DNA of 64,000 nt, from positions 418,420 to 482,419 of the forward strand of contig NZ_LMJW01000022.1 of the NCBI RefSeq assembly GCF_001429505.1, written 5' to 3'. Made by a program: the position numbers and the translations under genes. Within the stretch, counting starts at the first letter, position 1. Every line of letters begins with the position of its first letter. The notes beneath the pieces are model-generated. The model worked only from the letters and a program-made list of their open reading frames with translations. It made no database searches and was not told the origin of the DNA. The stretch comes from Allobosea sp. Root483D1 (GTDB taxonomy: Bacteria; Pseudomonadota; Alphaproteobacteria; Rhizobiales; Beijerinckiaceae). This document shows positions 5,636-11,107 of this stretch, piece by piece.

Positions 5636-7093
5636 CTATTCCGAACGCAGGGCGGCAAAGGCGTCAAGGGCGCGCCGGCGGCCGAAGTCGAGCGCGATGA
5701 CCGGCTTCGGATAGTCCCGGCCGAGGACGATTCCGGTCTGTTTCAATGCGCTCGCCGGCGCCTCCCACGGCCGATGGATGAACTTGTCGTCGAGCCCAGC
5801 CAGTTCGGGGACGAAGCGCCGGACGTAAACGCCCTTCGGATCGAATTTTTCGCCTTGGGTCACCGGGTTGAAGACACGGAAATAGGGGGCGGCATCGGCG
5901 CCGGAGCCGGCGACCCATTGCCAACTCGCCGGATTGTTCGCGGGATCGGCGTCGACCAGCGTGTCCCAGAACCAGGCTTCCCCGGCTCGCCAGTCGGTCA
6001 GCAGGTGCTTGATCAGGAATGAGGCCGTGATCATCCGGACGCGGTTATGCATCCAGCCGGTCTGCCAGAGCTCGCGCAGGCCGGCATCGACGATCGGATA
6101 GCCGGTCAAGCCCTTCTGCCAGGCTCTCAGGCCGGTTTTGTCTTTCTCCCAGGACATCGCATCGAAGCGGCGATCATAGCTGACGCTGGCGAGGTCAGGA
6201 TTGTGGAAGAGCAGATGATAGGAGAACTCGCGCCAGCCGATCTCGCTGAAGAACTTCTCGACATCGGCGGCCGAGCCTGGTGTGTTGCCAGCCTGCCGTG
6301 CAGCTTGGGCCGCATGCCAGATCTGGCGCGGGCTGATCTCGCCGAAGCGCAGATGCGGCGACAGCCGCGAGGTCGAGAGCCTGTCCGGGCGGTCGCGTGC
6401 CTCGCGATAGCCGGCGAGTGTCTCGTCGAGAAAAGCGTCAAGCCGATGCCGTGCGCCATCCTCGCCGGGCGTCCAGCTTTCGCGCAGCCCACCGGCCCAG
6501 TCGGGCCTCGTCGGCTCCAAAGCGAGATCTGCGACCGTGAGTATCCGCTTGCGCAGCGCTGCCGGCAGTGTCGCCTTGCTGAGCCTGGCCGGCGCAGGAA
6601 GCGGAGCCGCGGGCTCGCCGCCCTCGCGCACAGCGCGCCAATAGGGCGTGAACACCTTGAACGGCCCATCCGTTTTGGTTTTCACCTGCCATGGCTCGTT
6701 GAGCAGATTGGCGTTGAAGCTCTCGACCGCGGTGCCGGCCTCGGTGAGCGTGGCCTTCAGTGCCTTGTCGAGGGCGATCGCGGCGCTGTCATAGCGCCGG
6801 TTCCAGGCGACGTAGCCGCTGCCGGTGCGTTCCACGACATCAGGCAGCACCTCCGCCGGATCGCCGCGCAGGACCAGCAGTTCGCCGCCTTTCGCCGCGA
6901 TGGCTTCCGACAGCGCCGTCAGCGAGCGTGACAGCCACCAGCGGGCGGCGGCGCCGAGCGGCCGGCGCTCCGCCGACGTGTCGAGGATGTAGAGGCAGAT
7001 GAGATGGCCGCGGTCGATCGCCGCTCTCAGGGCTGGGTTGTCGGAAAGGCGCAGGTCGTCGCGGAACCAGAGCAGGGCAGGGCGTGCGGTCAC
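5636..7093 (-). CDS. phrB: Deoxyribodipyrimidine photolyase
   Basis: A cryptochrome/photolyase-family flavoprotein that repairs cyclobutane pyrimidine dimers in light. The N-terminal antenna-binding domain starts ALLWFRDDLRLSDNPAL. The C-terminal FAD-binding domain includes WVAGSGADAAPYFRVFNP and the following FDPKGVYVRRFVPEL, typical of class I CPD photolyases. I chose GTG 7093, giving 485 residues, because the family fold begins five residues later. An in-frame ATG at 7159 would add 22 residues without family similarity. First gene of a two-gene unit with the aac(3)-like gene. Confidence 0.9.
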   Translation of the reverse strand: MTARPALLWFRDDLRLSDNPALRAAIDRGHLICLYILDTSAERRPLGAAARWWLSRSLTALSEAIAAKGGELLVLRGDPAEVLPDVVERTGSGYVAWNRRYDSAAIALDKALKATLTEAGTAVESFNANLLNEPWQVKTKTDGPFKVFTPYWRAVREGGEPAAPLPAPARLSKATLPAALRKRILTVADLALEPTRPDWAGGLRESWTPGEDGARHRLDAFLDETLAGYREARDRPDRLSTSRLSPHLRFGEISPRQIWHAAQAARQAGNTPGSAADVEKFFSEIGWREFSYHLLFHNPDLASVSYDRRFDAMSWEKDKTGLRAWQKGLTGYPIVDAGLRELWQTGWMHNRVRMITASFLIKHLLTDWRAGEAWFWDTLVDADPANNPASWQWVAGSGADAAPYFRVFNPVTQGEKFDPKGVYVRRFVPELAGLDDKFIHRPWEAPASALKQTGIVLGRDYPKPVIALDFGRRRALDAFAALRSE

Positions 7094-7236
7094 TCGGTGA
7101 GGCCTTGTCGATGCGATGCTCTGATACGCCGACGGAACCGGTTTGGTTGCGTGGTGCAAAGGGATAGTGGCGCCGCGAGCCGCCGCGGTTCGTGATAGAT
7201 TATGTCGACTGCGCGAAAAAGAAGGGGGACGGGCTC

Positions 7237-7827
7237 ATGGCGGCGCCGGAAATCGAGGCCCTGAACCGGCGCGTCGCCGCGCTCGAAGCGCAGCTTTCCG
7301 CCTTGCTGCAGGCGGTCAATGTCGGGCGTGGCGGTACGGTCGCGATCACGGCCCCGGCTGGGCTGTCGATCACCGTCGGCGGCACCTGCACGATCAGTGT
7401 CGGTGCCGAGCTGGCACTGACGGTGGGAAGCAATTTCCGGACGGCGGTGGGCTCGGCCTATGTCGTCAATGTCGGTGCCGGCATGCGGACGAACGCGGGA
7501 ACCAGCATCGGCGTGTTCGCCGGCACTGCGCTGACCATGAACGCCAATCGCGAGATCAGTTTGTCGACCCGTGCCTTCGAGGTCGCGGCGGCGGTCAGCA
7601 TCGATCTCGACAGCAGCAAGGATTTCGAGATCGCCAGCGGCAAGGCGCTGGTGGTGAAGGCCGCCGACAGCATCCTGCTCGATGCGGGTTCGGCGGAAAT
7701 CAACTTGAAGAAGGACGGCTCCGTCGATCTCAAGGGCAAGGACGTGACGATCCGGGCGAGCGGCAAGATCAATGCGACGGCGAGCTCGGACGTCGTGATC
7801 AAGGGCTCGAAGATCAAGCAGAATTGA
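7237..7827 (+). CDS. Orphan gp5/VgrG-like beta-helix spike protein
   Basis: A 196-residue protein not recognised as a named family but with clear structure. Residues 5-28 look like a short amphipathic helix or coiled coil (IEALNRRVAALEAQLSALLQ). Gly then recurs every eight residues at 48, 56, 64, 72, 80, 88 and 96, with Val before it in the first five. This matches the octapeptide repeat of the T4 gp5 and VgrG triple-stranded beta-helix. Residues 150-196, with INLKKDGSVDLKGKDVTI and VVIKGSKIKQN, resemble the distal end of VgrG spikes. There is no signal peptide, lysozyme or OB domain. AAGGGGG precedes ATG 7237. No other type VI or phage gene is in the window. The protein is predicted to form a rigid trimeric needle; its role is unknown. 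Confidence 0.6.
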   Translation: MAAPEIEALNRRVAALEAQLSALLQAVNVGRGGTVAITAPAGLSITVGGTCTISVGAELALTVGSNFRTAVGSAYVVNVGAGMRTNAGTSIGVFAGTALTMNANREISLSTRAFEVAAAVSIDLDSSKDFEIASGKALVVKAADSILLDAGSAEINLKKDGSVDLKGKDVTIRASGKINATASSDVVIKGSKIKQN

Positions 7828-7880
7828 GCCGCGGCGCGGCCCGGTTGGCGATCCTTGGCTTAGCGTGGCGGGCAAAGAAA

Positions 7881-7906
7881 AAGGCCCCGCCTGAGGGCGG
7901 GGCCTT
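7881..7906 (-). terminator. Rho-independent terminator of the efflux operon
   Basis: A perfect 11-bp stem (AAGGCCCCGCC / GGCGGGGCCTT) with a TGAG loop. Read leftwards it is followed by a T-rich tract (TTTTTCTTTG), so it terminates the minus-strand pump operon 12 bp after its stop codon. It may also act on the convergent spike gene from the other side. Confidence 0.85.
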
Positions 7907-7918
7907 GTCGTTGGTCGG

Positions 7919-10900
7919 TCAGTGGTGGGCCTGCGGCGTCGCGTCTTTCGGCTCGGCTTCTTTCTTCTTGCTGCCGAGCGAAGCGAGCCAGCGCACCACG
8001 ACGTAGAACACCGGGGTGAACAGCAGGCCGAACAGGGTGACGCCGATCATGCCCGAGAACACCGCGATGCCGAGCACCTGGCGCATCTCGGCGCCCGCGC
8101 CGATCGAGATCGTCAGAGGCAGCACGCCGAGGATGAAGGCGAGCGAGGTCATCAGGATCGGTCGCAGCCGGGTCCTGGCGGCGGCGATCGCGGCGTCGCG
8201 CCGGCTCATGCCCTCGTCCTCGGCCTGCTTGGCGAACTCGACGATCAAGATCGCGTTCTTCGCTGCGAGACCGACGAGCACGACGAGGCCGATATCCACC
8301 AGCACGTTGCGGTCGAAGTCCTTGTAGCCGACGCCGATCATCGCCGCGAGGATACACATCGGCACGATCAGGATGACCGCCAGCGGCAAGGTCCAGCTCT
8401 CGTAGAGCGCCGCCAGCAGCAGGAAGACGAACACCACCGCGAGGCCGAAGGCGATGATCGCGGTGTTGCCGGCGAGCTTCTCCTGCAACGCGATCTCGGT
8501 CCACTCGAAGCCGAAGCCGGCCGGCAGTACCTGGGCTGCGATTTTCTCCACCGCCGCGATGCCCTGGCCGGTCGAGTAGCCGCGCGCCATCGACATCTGC
8601 ACTTCAGCCGCCGGATAGAGGTTGTAGCGCGGCACGCGATAGGCACCGGTCGTATCGGCGAAGGTCGCGACGGAACCGATCGGCACCATCTCGCCATCGG
8701 CATTGCGCGTCTTCAGGTCGGCGACGTCGCGGATGTCTAGCCGCTGGGGATTGTCCGCCTGAGCCGTGACGCGGAAGGTGCGGCCGAGGATGTTGAAGTC
8801 GTTGACATAGGCCGAGCCCATATAGATCGACAGCGTCTCGAACACGCGCGTCACCGGGACACCGAGCATCTCGGCCTTGGTGCGGTCGATATCGGCGTAG
8901 ATCTGCGGCGTCTTGGTCGAGAACAGCGTGAAGGGCTGCTGGATACCGGGAGACTGCCCGGCGGTTCCAGCGACGGCCCAGGTCGCGCCTTCCAGCGCCG
9001 CCAGGCCCTTGCCACCGCGATCCTGGACATAGCCCTTGAGACCGCCGCCATTACCGATGCCGGGAACTGCCGGGGGCTCGATGATCAGCGCGAAAGCCTC
9101 GCCGATCGAGAACAGCTGCGTGCGCAGGTCGTTGAGGATGCCCTGGGTGGTCAGGCCGGCTTTGGCCCTCTCCTTGAAGTCGGTGAGGGTGACGAAGGCA
9201 ACGCCGGCATTGGGCGCCAGGGTGAAGGTCGCGCCGTCGAGACCGGCGAAGGCGACGGCATGGGCGACACCCGGCCGTGACAGCAAGATGTCGGTCGCCT
9301 TGCGGATGACCGCGTCGGTCCGCGGCAGCGACGAGCCCGGCGGCAGCTGGAAGACGGCGATGAAGTAGCCGCGGTCGAGCTGCGGCACCAGGCCCGTCGG
9401 AATCGACGCCAGGCGCTGGCCGGCGACCGCGATGAGCGCGGCATAGACCAGCAGCATGACGACGCCGAAGCGGATCAGGCGCGAGGTCAATGAGCCGTAA
9501 GCGTGCGAGAGCCAGTCGAAGCCCTTGTTGAAGTACTTGAAGAACCAGCGCAGCGGCGCGCTGAGCATCGCCAGGAAGCCCTTCGGCTCTTCATGGCTGT
9601 GCGGCTTAAGCAGGATCGCCGCCAGGGCCGGCGACAGGGTCAGCGAGACGAAGCACGAGATCGCCGTCGAGGCTGCGATCGTCACCGCGAACTGCTGGTA
9701 GAATGTGCCTTGCAGCCCGGTGATGAACGCGGTCGGGATGAACACGGCGCACAGCACCAGTGCGATCGCAAGCAGCGCACCGCCGACCTCGTCCATGGTC
9801 TTGTGAGCGGCGTCCTTGGCGCTCATGCCCTGCGCCAGATAGCGCTCGACGTTCTCGACCACGACGATCGCGTCGTCGACGACGATGCCGATCGCCAGCA
9901 CCAGCGCCAGCAGCGAGATCGTATTGAACGAGATCCCGACCGCGCTCATCACCAGGAAGGTGCCGACCAGCGAGACCGGGATCGCGATGATCGGGATGAT
10001 CGCGGCGCGCCAGGTCTGCAGGAACAGGATCACCACGATCACGACGAGCACGATCGCCTCGAGCAGCGTCGTGACCACGGCCGAGACGGATTCCCGGATG
10101 AACTCCGTCGGGTTGTAGACGATGGTGTGTTCGACGCCGGCCGGGAAGTTCTTCGAGAGCTCCTGCATCGTCTTGATGAGGGCCTCCGACGCTGCCAGCG
10201 CATTCGTCCCCGGGCGCTGGAAGACGCCGATCGCGACGGCTTCCTTGTTGTCGAGATAGGAGTTGGAGAGGTAGTCCTGCGCGCCGAGCTCGACGCGGGC
10301 AATGTCGCGAACACGGATCGTGCCGCCGTCCGCATCCGAGCGCACGACGATGTTGTAGAATTCGTCGACGCTGGTGAGGCGCCCGAGCGTGTTGACCGAA
10401 AGCTGGAACGCGCCGTCCGACGTCGCCGGCGGCTGGTTGATCGCGCCTGCCGCGACCTGGATGTTGGCGGCGCGGATCGCGGCGACGACATCGCCTGCGG
10501 TCAGGTTGCGCGCCGCGACCTTGGCCGGATCGAGCCAGACGCGCATCGAATAGTCACGCGCACCGAAGACCTGGACGTCGCCGACGCCCTCGACGCGGGT
10601 CAGCACGTCCTTGACGTTCAGCGTCGTGTAGTTCGAGACGTATTGCTGGTCGCGCGAGCCGTCCGGGGACAGCATGTGGATGACCATCAGGAAGTCGGGC
10701 GAGGCCTTGCGGACCTGCAGGCCGAGCGTGCGCACTTCCTGAGGCAGGCGCGGCTCGGCGGCCGAGACGCGGTTCTGCACGAGCACCTGGGCCTGATCGA
10801 CATCGGTGCCGGCCTTGAAGACGACGTTGATCGTCACGCGCCCGTCGCCGGTCGACTGCGACGAGATGTAGAGCATGTCGTCGACGCCGTTGACCTCCTG

Positions 10901-11107
10901 CTCGATCGGCGCGGCGACCGTCGAGGCGACGACCTCGGCCGAGGCGCCCGGATAGTTCGCGGTGATCGTGACGGTCGGTGGCGCGATCTCGGGATATTCG
11001 GCGATCGGCAAGGTACGCAGGGTGATGGCACCTGCGATCGTCAGCAGCACCGAGAGCACGGTCGCGAAGATCGGCCGGTCGATGAAGAAATGGGCGAAGC
11101 GGAACAT
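7919..11107 (-). CDS. RND efflux pump inner-membrane transporter (HAE1/AcrB family)
   Basis: A 1062-residue proton-driven exporter of hydrophobic and amphiphilic compounds, forming a trimer in the inner membrane. It has the family start FRFAHFFIDRPIFATVLSV, twelve expected membrane helices and two large periplasmic loops. The proton-relay residues are present: paired Asp in GIVVDDAIVVVENVER (helix 4) and Lys in GLAAKNAILIVEFAKQ (helix 10). Length is normal. It follows the adaptor gene by 73 bp and ends at a strong terminator. No TolC-type outer-membrane factor gene is next to it, so the pump presumably uses one encoded elsewhere. Substrates cannot be assigned. Confidence 0.95.
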   Translation of the reverse strand: MFRFAHFFIDRPIFATVLSVLLTIAGAITLRTLPIAEYPEIAPPTVTITANYPGASAEVVASTVAAPIEQEVNGVDDMLYISSQSTGDGRVTINVVFKAGTDVDQAQVLVQNRVSAAEPRLPQEVRTLGLQVRKASPDFLMVIHMLSPDGSRDQQYVSNYTTLNVKDVLTRVEGVGDVQVFGARDYSMRVWLDPAKVAARNLTAGDVVAAIRAANIQVAAGAINQPPATSDGAFQLSVNTLGRLTSVDEFYNIVVRSDADGGTIRVRDIARVELGAQDYLSNSYLDNKEAVAIGVFQRPGTNALAASEALIKTMQELSKNFPAGVEHTIVYNPTEFIRESVSAVVTTLLEAIVLVVIVVILFLQTWRAAIIPIIAIPVSLVGTFLVMSAVGISFNTISLLALVLAIGIVVDDAIVVVENVERYLAQGMSAKDAAHKTMDEVGGALLAIALVLCAVFIPTAFITGLQGTFYQQFAVTIAASTAISCFVSLTLSPALAAILLKPHSHEEPKGFLAMLSAPLRWFFKYFNKGFDWLSHAYGSLTSRLIRFGVVMLLVYAALIAVAGQRLASIPTGLVPQLDRGYFIAVFQLPPGSSLPRTDAVIRKATDILLSRPGVAHAVAFAGLDGATFTLAPNAGVAFVTLTDFKERAKAGLTTQGILNDLRTQLFSIGEAFALIIEPPAVPGIGNGGGLKGYVQDRGGKGLAALEGATWAVAGTAGQSPGIQQPFTLFSTKTPQIYADIDRTKAEMLGVPVTRVFETLSIYMGSAYVNDFNILGRTFRVTAQADNPQRLDIRDVADLKTRNADGEMVPIGSVATFADTTGAYRVPRYNLYPAAEVQMSMARGYSTGQGIAAVEKIAAQVLPAGFGFEWTEIALQEKLAGNTAIIAFGLAVVFVFLLLAALYESWTLPLAVILIVPMCILAAMIGVGYKDFDRNVLVDIGLVVLVGLAAKNAILIVEFAKQAEDEGMSRRDAAIAAARTRLRPILMTSLAFILGVLPLTISIGAGAEMRQVLGIAVFSGMIGVTLFGLLFTPVFYVVVRWLASLGSKKKEAEPKDATPQAHH

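What the first reader, a model, noticed from the sequence alone, without database searches (positions are those of the whole stretch)
7237..7827. Stand-alone gp5/VgrG-like beta-helix needle gene with no secretion or phage neighbours
Seven Gly recur exactly every eight residues (48 to 96), with Val before the first five. This is the octapeptide pattern of the T4 gp5 triple-stranded beta-helix. The C-terminal 45 residues resemble the distal part of VgrG. A short N-terminal helix replaces the usual gp27/OB/lysozyme modules, and nothing near it belongs to a T6SS or phage. It could be a spike tip of a distant system, a self-standing trimeric fibre, or a relic.
Basis: partly seen in the sequence, partly recalled or inferred. 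Interest (0 to 1): 0.65.

Follow-up and report, generated by a model that had tools for sequence, protein, structure and literature searches.

The report
Detached tip of a secretion spike
A small bacterial gene encodes only the far tip of the spike that type VI secretion machines use to pierce other cells, sits far from that machine's genes, yet tends to vanish from a genome when the machine does, so it is probably a spare or accessory tip working with it.

Summary
Window 7237-7827 encodes 196 aa: a helix with a coiled-coil motif, an eight-residue Gly-repeat shaft, and a VgrG-type tip. Pfam places it in DUF2345, the VgrG needle extension, above the curated cut-off. In the 10 of 48 matching plasmid records I read, the match is the C-terminus of a VgrG-sized frame (734-821 aa), ending at the same last residue. 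The gene is not a relic: dN/dS is 0.10-0.29 and both ends are kept in 38 of 38 distinct Bosea orthologues. It lies at three different sites, with no T6SS gene in 26 loci checked. But the genome does carry a type VI secretion system (T6SS), about 360 kb away. Across 61 Bosea genomes the gene follows the sheath gene (41 both, 13 neither, 7 discordant), and 6 of 7 T6SS losses on the tree coincide with its loss; a stricter tree test lacked power. Best reading: a T6SS accessory, a VgrG distal tip supplied in trans, probably a spike extension or cargo adaptor, or else a TvpC-like PAAR holder. A new variant of known stand-alone DUF2345/VgrG-mimic proteins. Trimeric fold, binding and function are untested.

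The parts
7237..7827 (+). Stand-alone VgrG-tip (DUF2345) gene, 196 aa
   Evidence: ORF; DUF2345 above cut-off; matches in 43 of 61 Bosea genomes, one of them a decayed remnant and one cut by a contig end. An in-frame GTG at 7192 is a less likely start: 38 of 38 distinct orthologues have an ATG at the position of 7237 (the script picked the ATG nearest that position).
7246..7317 (+). N-terminal helix (residues 4-27) with heptads L9-V13-L16-L20-L23-V27 and the pattern R-h-x-x-h-E (residues 12-17)
   Evidence: AlphaFold helix H4-27, pLDDT 77 and 83 for residues 1-20, 55 for 21-30; pattern in 38 of 38 distinct orthologues, and in 1,987 of 100,000 shuffles of residues 1-28. That the pattern signals a trimer is recalled, from no call.
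7357..7527 (+). Octapeptide-repeat shaft (residues 41-97), Gly every eight residues from 48 to 96
   Evidence: total length of orthologues varies from 147 to 239 aa
7672..7824 (+). VgrG-type distal tip (residues 146-196), ending IKGSKIKQN
   Evidence: IKGSKIxQN-like end (allowing the conservative variants listed in the call) in 38 of 38 distinct orthologues; 29-36 of 59 residues identical to C-termini of VgrG-sized frames, 10 of 10 loci
7881..7906 (.). G+C-rich hairpin between this gene and the convergent acrB gene, terminator-like on the minus strand
   Evidence: 3 terminator-like sites found, 0.7 expected from shuffles
5636..7159 (-). DNA photolyase, divergent neighbour (not part of the system)
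   Evidence: Pfam; conserved neighbour in the window's clade
7919..11107 (-). AcrB-type RND efflux pump, convergent neighbour (not part of the system)
   Evidence: Pfam; conserved in the window's clade, in 4 of 7 tabulated loci with a small membrane-protein ORF in between

Best explanation
The protein is the detached distal tip of a VgrG spike, made as its own gene and working in trans with the cell's T6SS. Steps: (1) three chains trimerise through the N-terminal coiled coil, which replaces the gp27/OB head; (2) the following residues fold into a triple-stranded beta-helix needle of variable length; (3) the C-terminus forms a VgrG-type tip that can accept a PAAR-type cap or cargo; (4) the trimer most likely docks on the tip of the cell's short-needled VgrG (619 aa) as an extension or cargo adaptor, so that VgrG plus this protein equals the one-piece long VgrG of other Proteobacteria. 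Shown: the sequence features, homology to VgrG distal ends, purifying selection, association with T6SS. Inferred: the trimeric fold, the PAAR/cargo contact, docking on VgrG, and secretion.
For: DUF2345 in 21 of 21 aligned orthologues at E<=0.01. PDB profile hits to VgrG-like needles, 9gtr E 3.8e-8 and 9jg8 E 4.1e-5. In 10 of 10 non-Bosea loci read the match is the C-terminus of a 734-821 aa frame and ends at the same residue; four of these are VgrG by annotation or Pfam, six I judged by frame length and tip alone. Composite proteins: five Mesorhizobium VgrGs top the ranking by coverage times identity against the Bosea VgrG core (38.8-39.6%), and the same five records carry a match to this protein, in the same gene in the one read. 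Own T6SS: VgrG, Hcp, TssA/B/C/E/F and a ClpV-like ATPase, PAAR/TssK/L/M at a second site. Co-occurrence with TssC in 61 genomes: 41 both, 13 neither, 5 TssC only, 2 this gene only, Fisher p 1.1e-7 ignoring relatedness; 6 of 7 T6SS-loss branches also lose the gene, reached in 1 of 40,000 uniform and 32 of 40,000 length-weighted placements. In 12 of 12 main-clade genomes lacking the gene the site-2 neighbours remain. One of the two 'gene only' cases (G065) is a decayed remnant. Precedent: a stand-alone DUF2345 protein binds VgrG and an effector and bridges them (PMC10673891, section 8 read).
Against: No T6SS gene near it: 16 T6SS proteins (15 from the own genome, TssG from G001) gave no tblastn hit at E<=1e-5 in 26 loci, the window included. 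G019 keeps an intact copy without TssC, and five TssC-positive genomes lack it, so it is not essential for the T6SS. The stricter independent-pairs test was not significant (about 3.5 concordant, 0 opposite pairs, median p 0.125). By bit score several VgrGs of other groups match the Bosea VgrG core better than the Mesorhizobium ones (e.g. Rhodovulum 333 against 304 bits), and Rhodovulum is not among the 48 records that match this protein, so the composite argument is weak. The cell's own VgrG already ends in a tip (TITGGIVKIN) that aligns with this one only weakly (score 49; 300 shuffles mean 34, sd 5.8, maximum 65), and its own PAAR exists. No shared promoter element was seen, by eye and one sigma-54 pattern. 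No trimer model could be made, and the monomer model shows no beta-helix.
Confidence: 0.42

Rival explanations
1. TvpC-like placeholder: the trimer mimics the VgrG tip in the cytosol, holds the PAAR cap (or a PAAR effector) until VgrG replaces it, and is not secreted.
For: TvpC of Serratia is a stand-alone VgrG mimic without gp27 that forms a pre-complex with PAAR and is replaced by VgrG (PMC13373197, Results parts 2-3 and Discussion part 1 read). Here too gp27 is missing, the tip is among the best-kept parts, and 5 of 21 orthologues match the DUF3540 family weakly (best E 5.7e-5), a family of synteny type C accessory loci (PMC11883445, passage). VgrGs with this tip sit beside DUF6484 and DUF2169 genes in Mesorhizobium and Caballeronia.
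Against: The hallmark partner DUF2169 is absent from 53 of 61 Bosea genomes, this one included. The OB fold that TvpC has is missing. DUF3540 does not match the window protein. Not encoded near PAAR or VgrG.
Confidence: 0.25
2. Free-standing trimeric fibre or unknown cytosolic protein made from a captured VgrG tip, unrelated to the T6SS of the same cell; co-loss with the T6SS reflects shared lifestyle.
For: No T6SS gene in 26 loci; intact in T6SS-less G019; five T6SS-positive genomes lack it; tree-based pair test not significant.
Against: The tip motif is kept in 38 of 38; losses coincide on 6 of 7 T6SS-loss branches, including one clade of large genomes (G070, G077, G081; 6.6-7.3 Mb). No signal peptide is apparent by eye.
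Confidence: 0.25
3. Relic of a VgrG gene or of a phage, on the way out.
For: It is a piece of a larger protein family; decayed remnant in G065; weak PHROG match to a phage baseplate hub family, E 6.7e-4.
Against: dN/dS 0.10-0.29 over seven pairs; both ends kept in 38 of 38; no tblastn match at E<=0.01 in 50,697 phage records and none in viral contigs.
Confidence: 0.03
4. Spare, self-sufficient spike as in Francisella, where a 164-aa VgrG needle pairs with a separate head protein, used as an alternative to the normal VgrG.
For: Same architecture (needle without gp27 and OB; PMC5924787 passages); 19 of 21 orthologues match the Francisella TssI model at E<=0.01, best 1.1e-8.
Against: Far below that model's cut-off (23.8 against 100 bits for the window protein); the match covers mainly the tip (residues 130-192); no separate head protein was identified here.
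Confidence: 0.05

Closest known systems
Stand-alone DUF2345 protein of E. coli PAR (DUF2345PAR; PMC10673891)
   Same: Separate gene for the VgrG needle extension; acts with a VgrG in trans; DUF2345.
   Different: DUF2345PAR is encoded in a locus with vgrG, toxin and immunity genes; the Bosea gene is unlinked, has no recognised toxin or immunity neighbour, a coiled-coil N-terminus, and is kept across most of a genus at changing sites.
VgrG/TssI proteins with the same tip (Mesorhizobium ciceri WP_063173924.1, Paracoccus WP_101754507.1, Rhizobium, Caballeronia WP_206470101.1)
   Same: Distal 59 residues 49-61% identical, same last residue; octapeptide shaft.
   Different: Those are 734-821 aa frames; the two scanned have gp27 and OB domains and the three TssI-annotated ones read lie beside T6SS genes.
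TvpC (DUF3540) and PA0096-like DUF6484 proteins (PMC13373197)
   Same: Small trimeric VgrG mimics without gp27, accessory to the spike.
   Different: They have an OB fold and DUF2169 partners; here no OB match and no DUF2169 in the genome.
Francisella VgrG (164 aa; PMC5924787, passages)
   Same: Needle only, no gp27 or OB.
   Different: There it is the system's own spike, interdependent for secretion with IglC and PdpA; here a normal VgrG is also present.

Membership tests
DUF2345 (PF10106) | Profile score above the curated cut-off | tested here: met
   41.8 bits against 30.7, residues 33-184; 21 of 21 aligned orthologues at E<=0.01
VgrG/TssI | gp27-like domain (PF05954) | tested here: not met
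   No match listed up to E 10; present in own VgrG and in the two VgrG relatives scanned
VgrG/TssI | OB domain (PF04717) | tested here: not met
   No match listed up to E 10
VgrG/TssI | Encoded in a T6SS or vgrG locus | tested here: not met
   No tblastn hit of 16 T6SS proteins at E<=1e-5 in 26 loci
VgrG/TssI | Distal needle and tip | tested here: met
   29-36 of 59 identical residues, same last residue, 10 of 10 loci
Stand-alone DUF2345 adaptor | Independent gene with DUF2345 only | tested here: met
Stand-alone DUF2345 adaptor | Lies in a vgrG locus beside a toxin | tested here: not met
   No VgrG or other T6SS gene in 26 loci; neighbours
Stand-alone DUF2345 adaptor | Binds VgrG and an effector | not testable with these tools
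   needs pull-down
TvpC (DUF3540) | OB fold plus beta-prism, DUF3540 profile | tested here: not met
   No OB; DUF3540 in 5 of 21 orthologues at E<=0.01, not in the window protein
TvpC (DUF3540) | DUF2169 partner in the genome | tested here: not met
   Absent from own genome; 8 of 61 have it
TvpC (DUF3540) | Forms a PAAR pre-complex replaced by VgrG | not testable with these tools
   needs biochemistry
Francisella-type TssI (NF041249) | Score over the equivalog cut-off | tested here: not met
   23.8 against 100 bits
Phage gp5 needle | Close phage relatives or phage neighbours | tested here: not met
   No tblastn match at E<=0.01 in phage records, none in viral contigs, bacterial neighbours; only weak PHROG matches, best E 6.7e-4 to a baseplate hub/tail lysozyme family, and Gp5_trimer_C E 0.076
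Trimeric beta-helix | Three-fold triple-stranded beta-helix fold | tested here: inconclusive
   Only a monomer model, mean pLDDT 51, no beta-helix; PDB profile hits to VgrG needles

The most novel reading that the evidence does not exclude
Bosea runs a split spike: the hub VgrG is made in the T6SS locus, and a separately trimerised, exchangeable needle tip is made from an unlinked gene that moves around the chromosome, so spike length and tip specificity evolve independently of the machine (total length 147-239 aa, tip nearly invariant).
Probability: 0.3. Interest if true: 0.6.

Novelty: new variant of a known kind. Interest (0 to 1): 0.47.

Why it matters
A survey that looks only inside vgrG loci (as in PMC10673891, which scanned up to three genes downstream of each vgrG; passage) would miss an unlinked spike part. 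If the link is real, a T6SS spike can be assembled from genes far apart, and DUF2345 proteins without T6SS neighbours should be counted as candidate spike parts. The gene is small and naturally absent in several species, so its role is directly testable by deletion and pull-down in an environmental bacterium.

Tried and rejected
Structure: AlphaFold monomer on eight close sequences gave mean pLDDT 51 and pTM 0.22; I did not run a fold search on it because a low-confidence model gives meaningless matches. Shared regulation: I printed upstream regions of 15 orthologues and of some T6SS genes, looked at them by eye and with one sigma-54-type pattern in four loci; nothing found; no sigma-70-like promoter at 7080-7960; no Rfam match at 6900-8200. 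Phage origin: no match. TvpC membership: rejected on the missing OB and DUF2169. Whether the tip type goes with one PAAR type: the plasmid search with the own PAAR gave only 9 records, matched over about 30% of the query, and was uninformative. Weak Pfam hits (Sarcoglycan_1, DUF7305, CopK and others) are taken as chance in repetitive sequence; adenovirus fibre hits in the PDB search likewise.

Counting choices: G034 was dropped from the tree because no GatB match was found. G005, G026 and G068 have partial GatB. The 2x2 table counts G065 as 'present', although it is a remnant, and G083, cut by a contig end. The loss simulation assumes losses only, within the 54-genome main clade, and allowed lost clades of up to three genomes, as observed. 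The six basal genomes were left out of it.

Full report
What is there. The ORF at 7237-7827 (+) encodes 196 aa. Seven glycines stand exactly eight apart (48 to 96), five of them preceded by valine; shuffling residues 28-196 reached such a run in 2 of 100,000 trials. Pfam matches DUF2345, the VgrG needle extension, at E 1.2e-10, above the curated cut-off, and lists no gp27 or OB domain up to E 10. NCBIfam's best hit is the short Francisella VgrG, well under its cut-off. PHROGs gives weak hits, best E 6.7e-4 to a phage baseplate hub family. A profile of 21 orthologues finds VgrG-like needles among solved structures (9gtr E 3.8e-8, 9jg8 E 4.1e-5, Francisella 6u9e E 0.0078); adenovirus fibres (E 1.6e-4 and 2.6e-4) and coiled-coil peptides also appear.

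Anatomy. The N-terminal helix (residues 4-27) is the most confident part of a poor AlphaFold monomer model (mean pLDDT 51). A poor monomer model is what an intertwined trimer would give, but it does not show the trimer. The helix carries heptad-spaced Leu/Val and the pattern R-h-x-x-h-E, which I recall as a trimeric coiled-coil motif; it is in 38 of 38 distinct orthologues. The last nine residues fit IKGSKIxQN, with conservative variants, in 38 of 38, while total length runs from 147 to 239 aa; 25 of 38 lengths leave 4 on division by 8, 11 leave 3. Both ends are kept and the shaft varies.

Where its relatives are. No tblastn match at E<=0.01 in 50,697 phage records, none in viral contigs. In plasmids 48 records match; of the 27 with an annotated feature under the match, 26 are called TssI/VgrG or Vgr family and one is 'hypothetical', the latter a VgrG by Pfam. 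I read 10 of the 48 records: in 10 of 10 the match is the C-terminus of a 734-821 aa frame, 29-36 of the last 59 residues are identical, and the alignment ends at the last residue of both (loci). Four of the ten are VgrG by annotation or Pfam; for the other six I have frame length and tip only. In a sample of 385 genomes of the window's class, 16 match at E<=1e-6, the window's included. The other matches lie in frames of 481-1006 aa, three of them with one or two stops inside, except one 240-aa reading with eight internal TGA; I did not check their domains, and in the larger genomes only the best eight candidates were scored. Within these limits I found no stand-alone version outside Bosea: none in three further genera of the same family, and none at E<=0.001 in 24 genomes of other families of the order. 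That the organism is Bosea is inferred from named relatives at 76-95% identity.

Three sites, no secretion genes. In the window's clade (11 of 11 genomes) the gene lies 4.7-5.5 kb from gatB, between a photolyase and acrB in the seven loci tabulated; in four of these seven an ORF of 231-235 aa without a Pfam match in the two scanned, apparently a small membrane protein, lies convergently between it and acrB. In 15 of the 16 other loci tabulated it lies near a D-serine-dehydratase-like gene, usually with gamma-glutamyltranspeptidase and DUF1028 genes on the other side, sometimes with an MFS transporter, or a LysR regulator and chromate transporter, in between. In G004 it lies between a DeoR-type regulator and a caspase/FGE-sulfatase gene. 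Sixteen T6SS proteins gave no hit at E<=1e-5 in 26 loci, the window included. dN/dS is 0.10-0.29 for seven pairs within the window's clade.

A T6SS in the same genome. TagH, VgrG (619 aa), OmpA, TssA, TssB, TssC, Hcp, TssE, TssF and a ClpV-like ATPase lie at C22:781-797 kb, and PAAR, TssK, TssL and TssM near 1.03 Mb; the window gene is at 426 kb on the same contig. So the T6SS is itself split over two loci, and the needle gene is at a third place.

Co-occurrence. Of 61 Bosea genomes, TssC is in 46 and the needle gene in 43 (43 of 61 with the same absences by profile): both 41, neither 13, TssC only 5 (G013, G024, G026, G067, G076), gene only 2 (G019, G065). Fisher p is 1.1e-7, ignoring relatedness. 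On a GatB tree of 60 genomes, within the 54-genome main clade, T6SS was lost on 7 branches and the gene on 10; 6 branches are shared. Random placement of 10 losses reached 6 shared branches in 1 of 40,000 runs with equal branches and 32 of 40,000 with length weights. A stricter test on independent pairs had too few pairs: about 3.5 concordant, none opposite, median p 0.125. In 12 of 12 main-clade genomes without the gene the site-2 neighbours are still there, so a larger deletion at that site does not explain the absence. G065, counted as 'gene only', holds a degraded remnant with a broken tip and no coiled coil. G019 is a real exception: intact gene, no TssC and no OB-domain VgrG. One of the T6SS-less clades has genomes of 6.6-7.3 Mb, so genome reduction is not the common cause. 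DUF2169 is in 8 of 61 genomes and not in this one.

How it may work. A stand-alone DUF2345 protein in E. coli PAR binds both VgrG and an effector, and the effector does not bind VgrG without it (PMC10673891, section 8 read). There, short VgrG plus DUF2345 corresponds to a one-piece VgrG elsewhere. The same arithmetic may hold here: the Bosea VgrG has a short needle (Gp5_trimer_C at 482-535 of 619), and VgrGs of five Mesorhizobium records, first by coverage times identity against its core, come from records that also match this protein, in the same gene in the one read. By bit score, however, VgrGs from Rhodovulum, Paracoccus aminophilus and others, not among the 48 matching records, are closer to the Bosea core (up to 333 against 304 bits). 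The argument is therefore suggestive only, and I lowered this explanation from 0.45 to 0.42 and raised the T6SS-independent rival from 0.22 to 0.25. Second choice: a TvpC-like PAAR holder (PMC13373197: abstract, Results parts 2-3 of 4 and Discussion part 1 of 2 read). TvpC is a VgrG mimic without gp27 that VgrG later replaces; but here there is no DUF2169 and no OB fold. Elsewhere the VgrG C-terminus can matter for assembly: one residue change in DUF2345 blocks the T6SS of Acinetobacter (PMC6960284, passages). Shown: sequence, homology, conservation, co-occurrence. Inferred: trimer, docking, PAAR or cargo contact, secretion.

Novelty. Stand-alone DUF2345 genes within vgrG loci are known (PMC10673891). 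I did not find an unlinked, genus-wide, coiled-coil-bearing version in print, in an open-licence library and mostly from listings: DUF2345 with type VI secretion and VgrG (25 of 42 listed), Bosea with type VI secretion (15 of 17), stand-alone/orphan VgrG terms (7 of 7), DUF3540/DUF6484 (5 of 6), VgrG-like proteins lacking gp27 (12 of 23), DUF2345 domain-containing protein or Rhizobiales with type VI secretion (12 of 103). I file it as a new variant of a known kind.

Noticed in passing
L175:7473-7901 (G065:C1, minus strand): A degraded remnant of the gene in a T6SS-less basal Bosea genome: broken tip, no coiled coil, no stop after the tip.
   Followed up: partly
L068/L069 and L174 (own genome, C22:774-812 kb and 1020-1036 kb): The own T6SS is split: VgrG/sheath/Hcp/TssE-F/ClpV-like in one locus, PAAR/TssK/TssL/TssM about 230 kb away; in G001 a PAAR gene lies just after the ClpV-like gene of the VgrG/sheath cluster (L177).
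   Followed up: partly
L174:7784-8407 (minus strand): The own PAAR protein matches PAAR_motif positions 4-52 of 70 at its very C-terminus, with an Ala-rich stretch before it; a similar short match recurs in most of the 45 Bosea genomes with a PAAR hit.
   Followed up: no
L040:8600-9307 (minus strand; also L039, L041, L043): A 231-235 aa ORF with a hydrophobic N-terminus and (in L040) a Gly/Ser-rich tail, no Pfam match in the two scanned, abuts the gene convergently in four of seven window-clade loci; not called at the same place in the window, L042 or L044.
   Followed up: partly
L077:8685-9401 (G004): The longest orthologue (239 aa) sits at a third site beside a caspase-like/FGE-sulfatase gene.
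   Followed up: no
L207 and L214: In Mesorhizobium and Caballeronia, VgrGs with the same tip lie beside DUF6484 and DUF2169 genes (class II Tvp-type loci); the Paracoccus locus read (L180) shows TagF and TssM instead.
   Followed up: partly
window 7090-7875, minus strand: The antisense frame of the gene is also open (261 aa), as is another plus-strand frame (7143-8006); a high-G+C effect, not evidence of genes.
   Followed up: no
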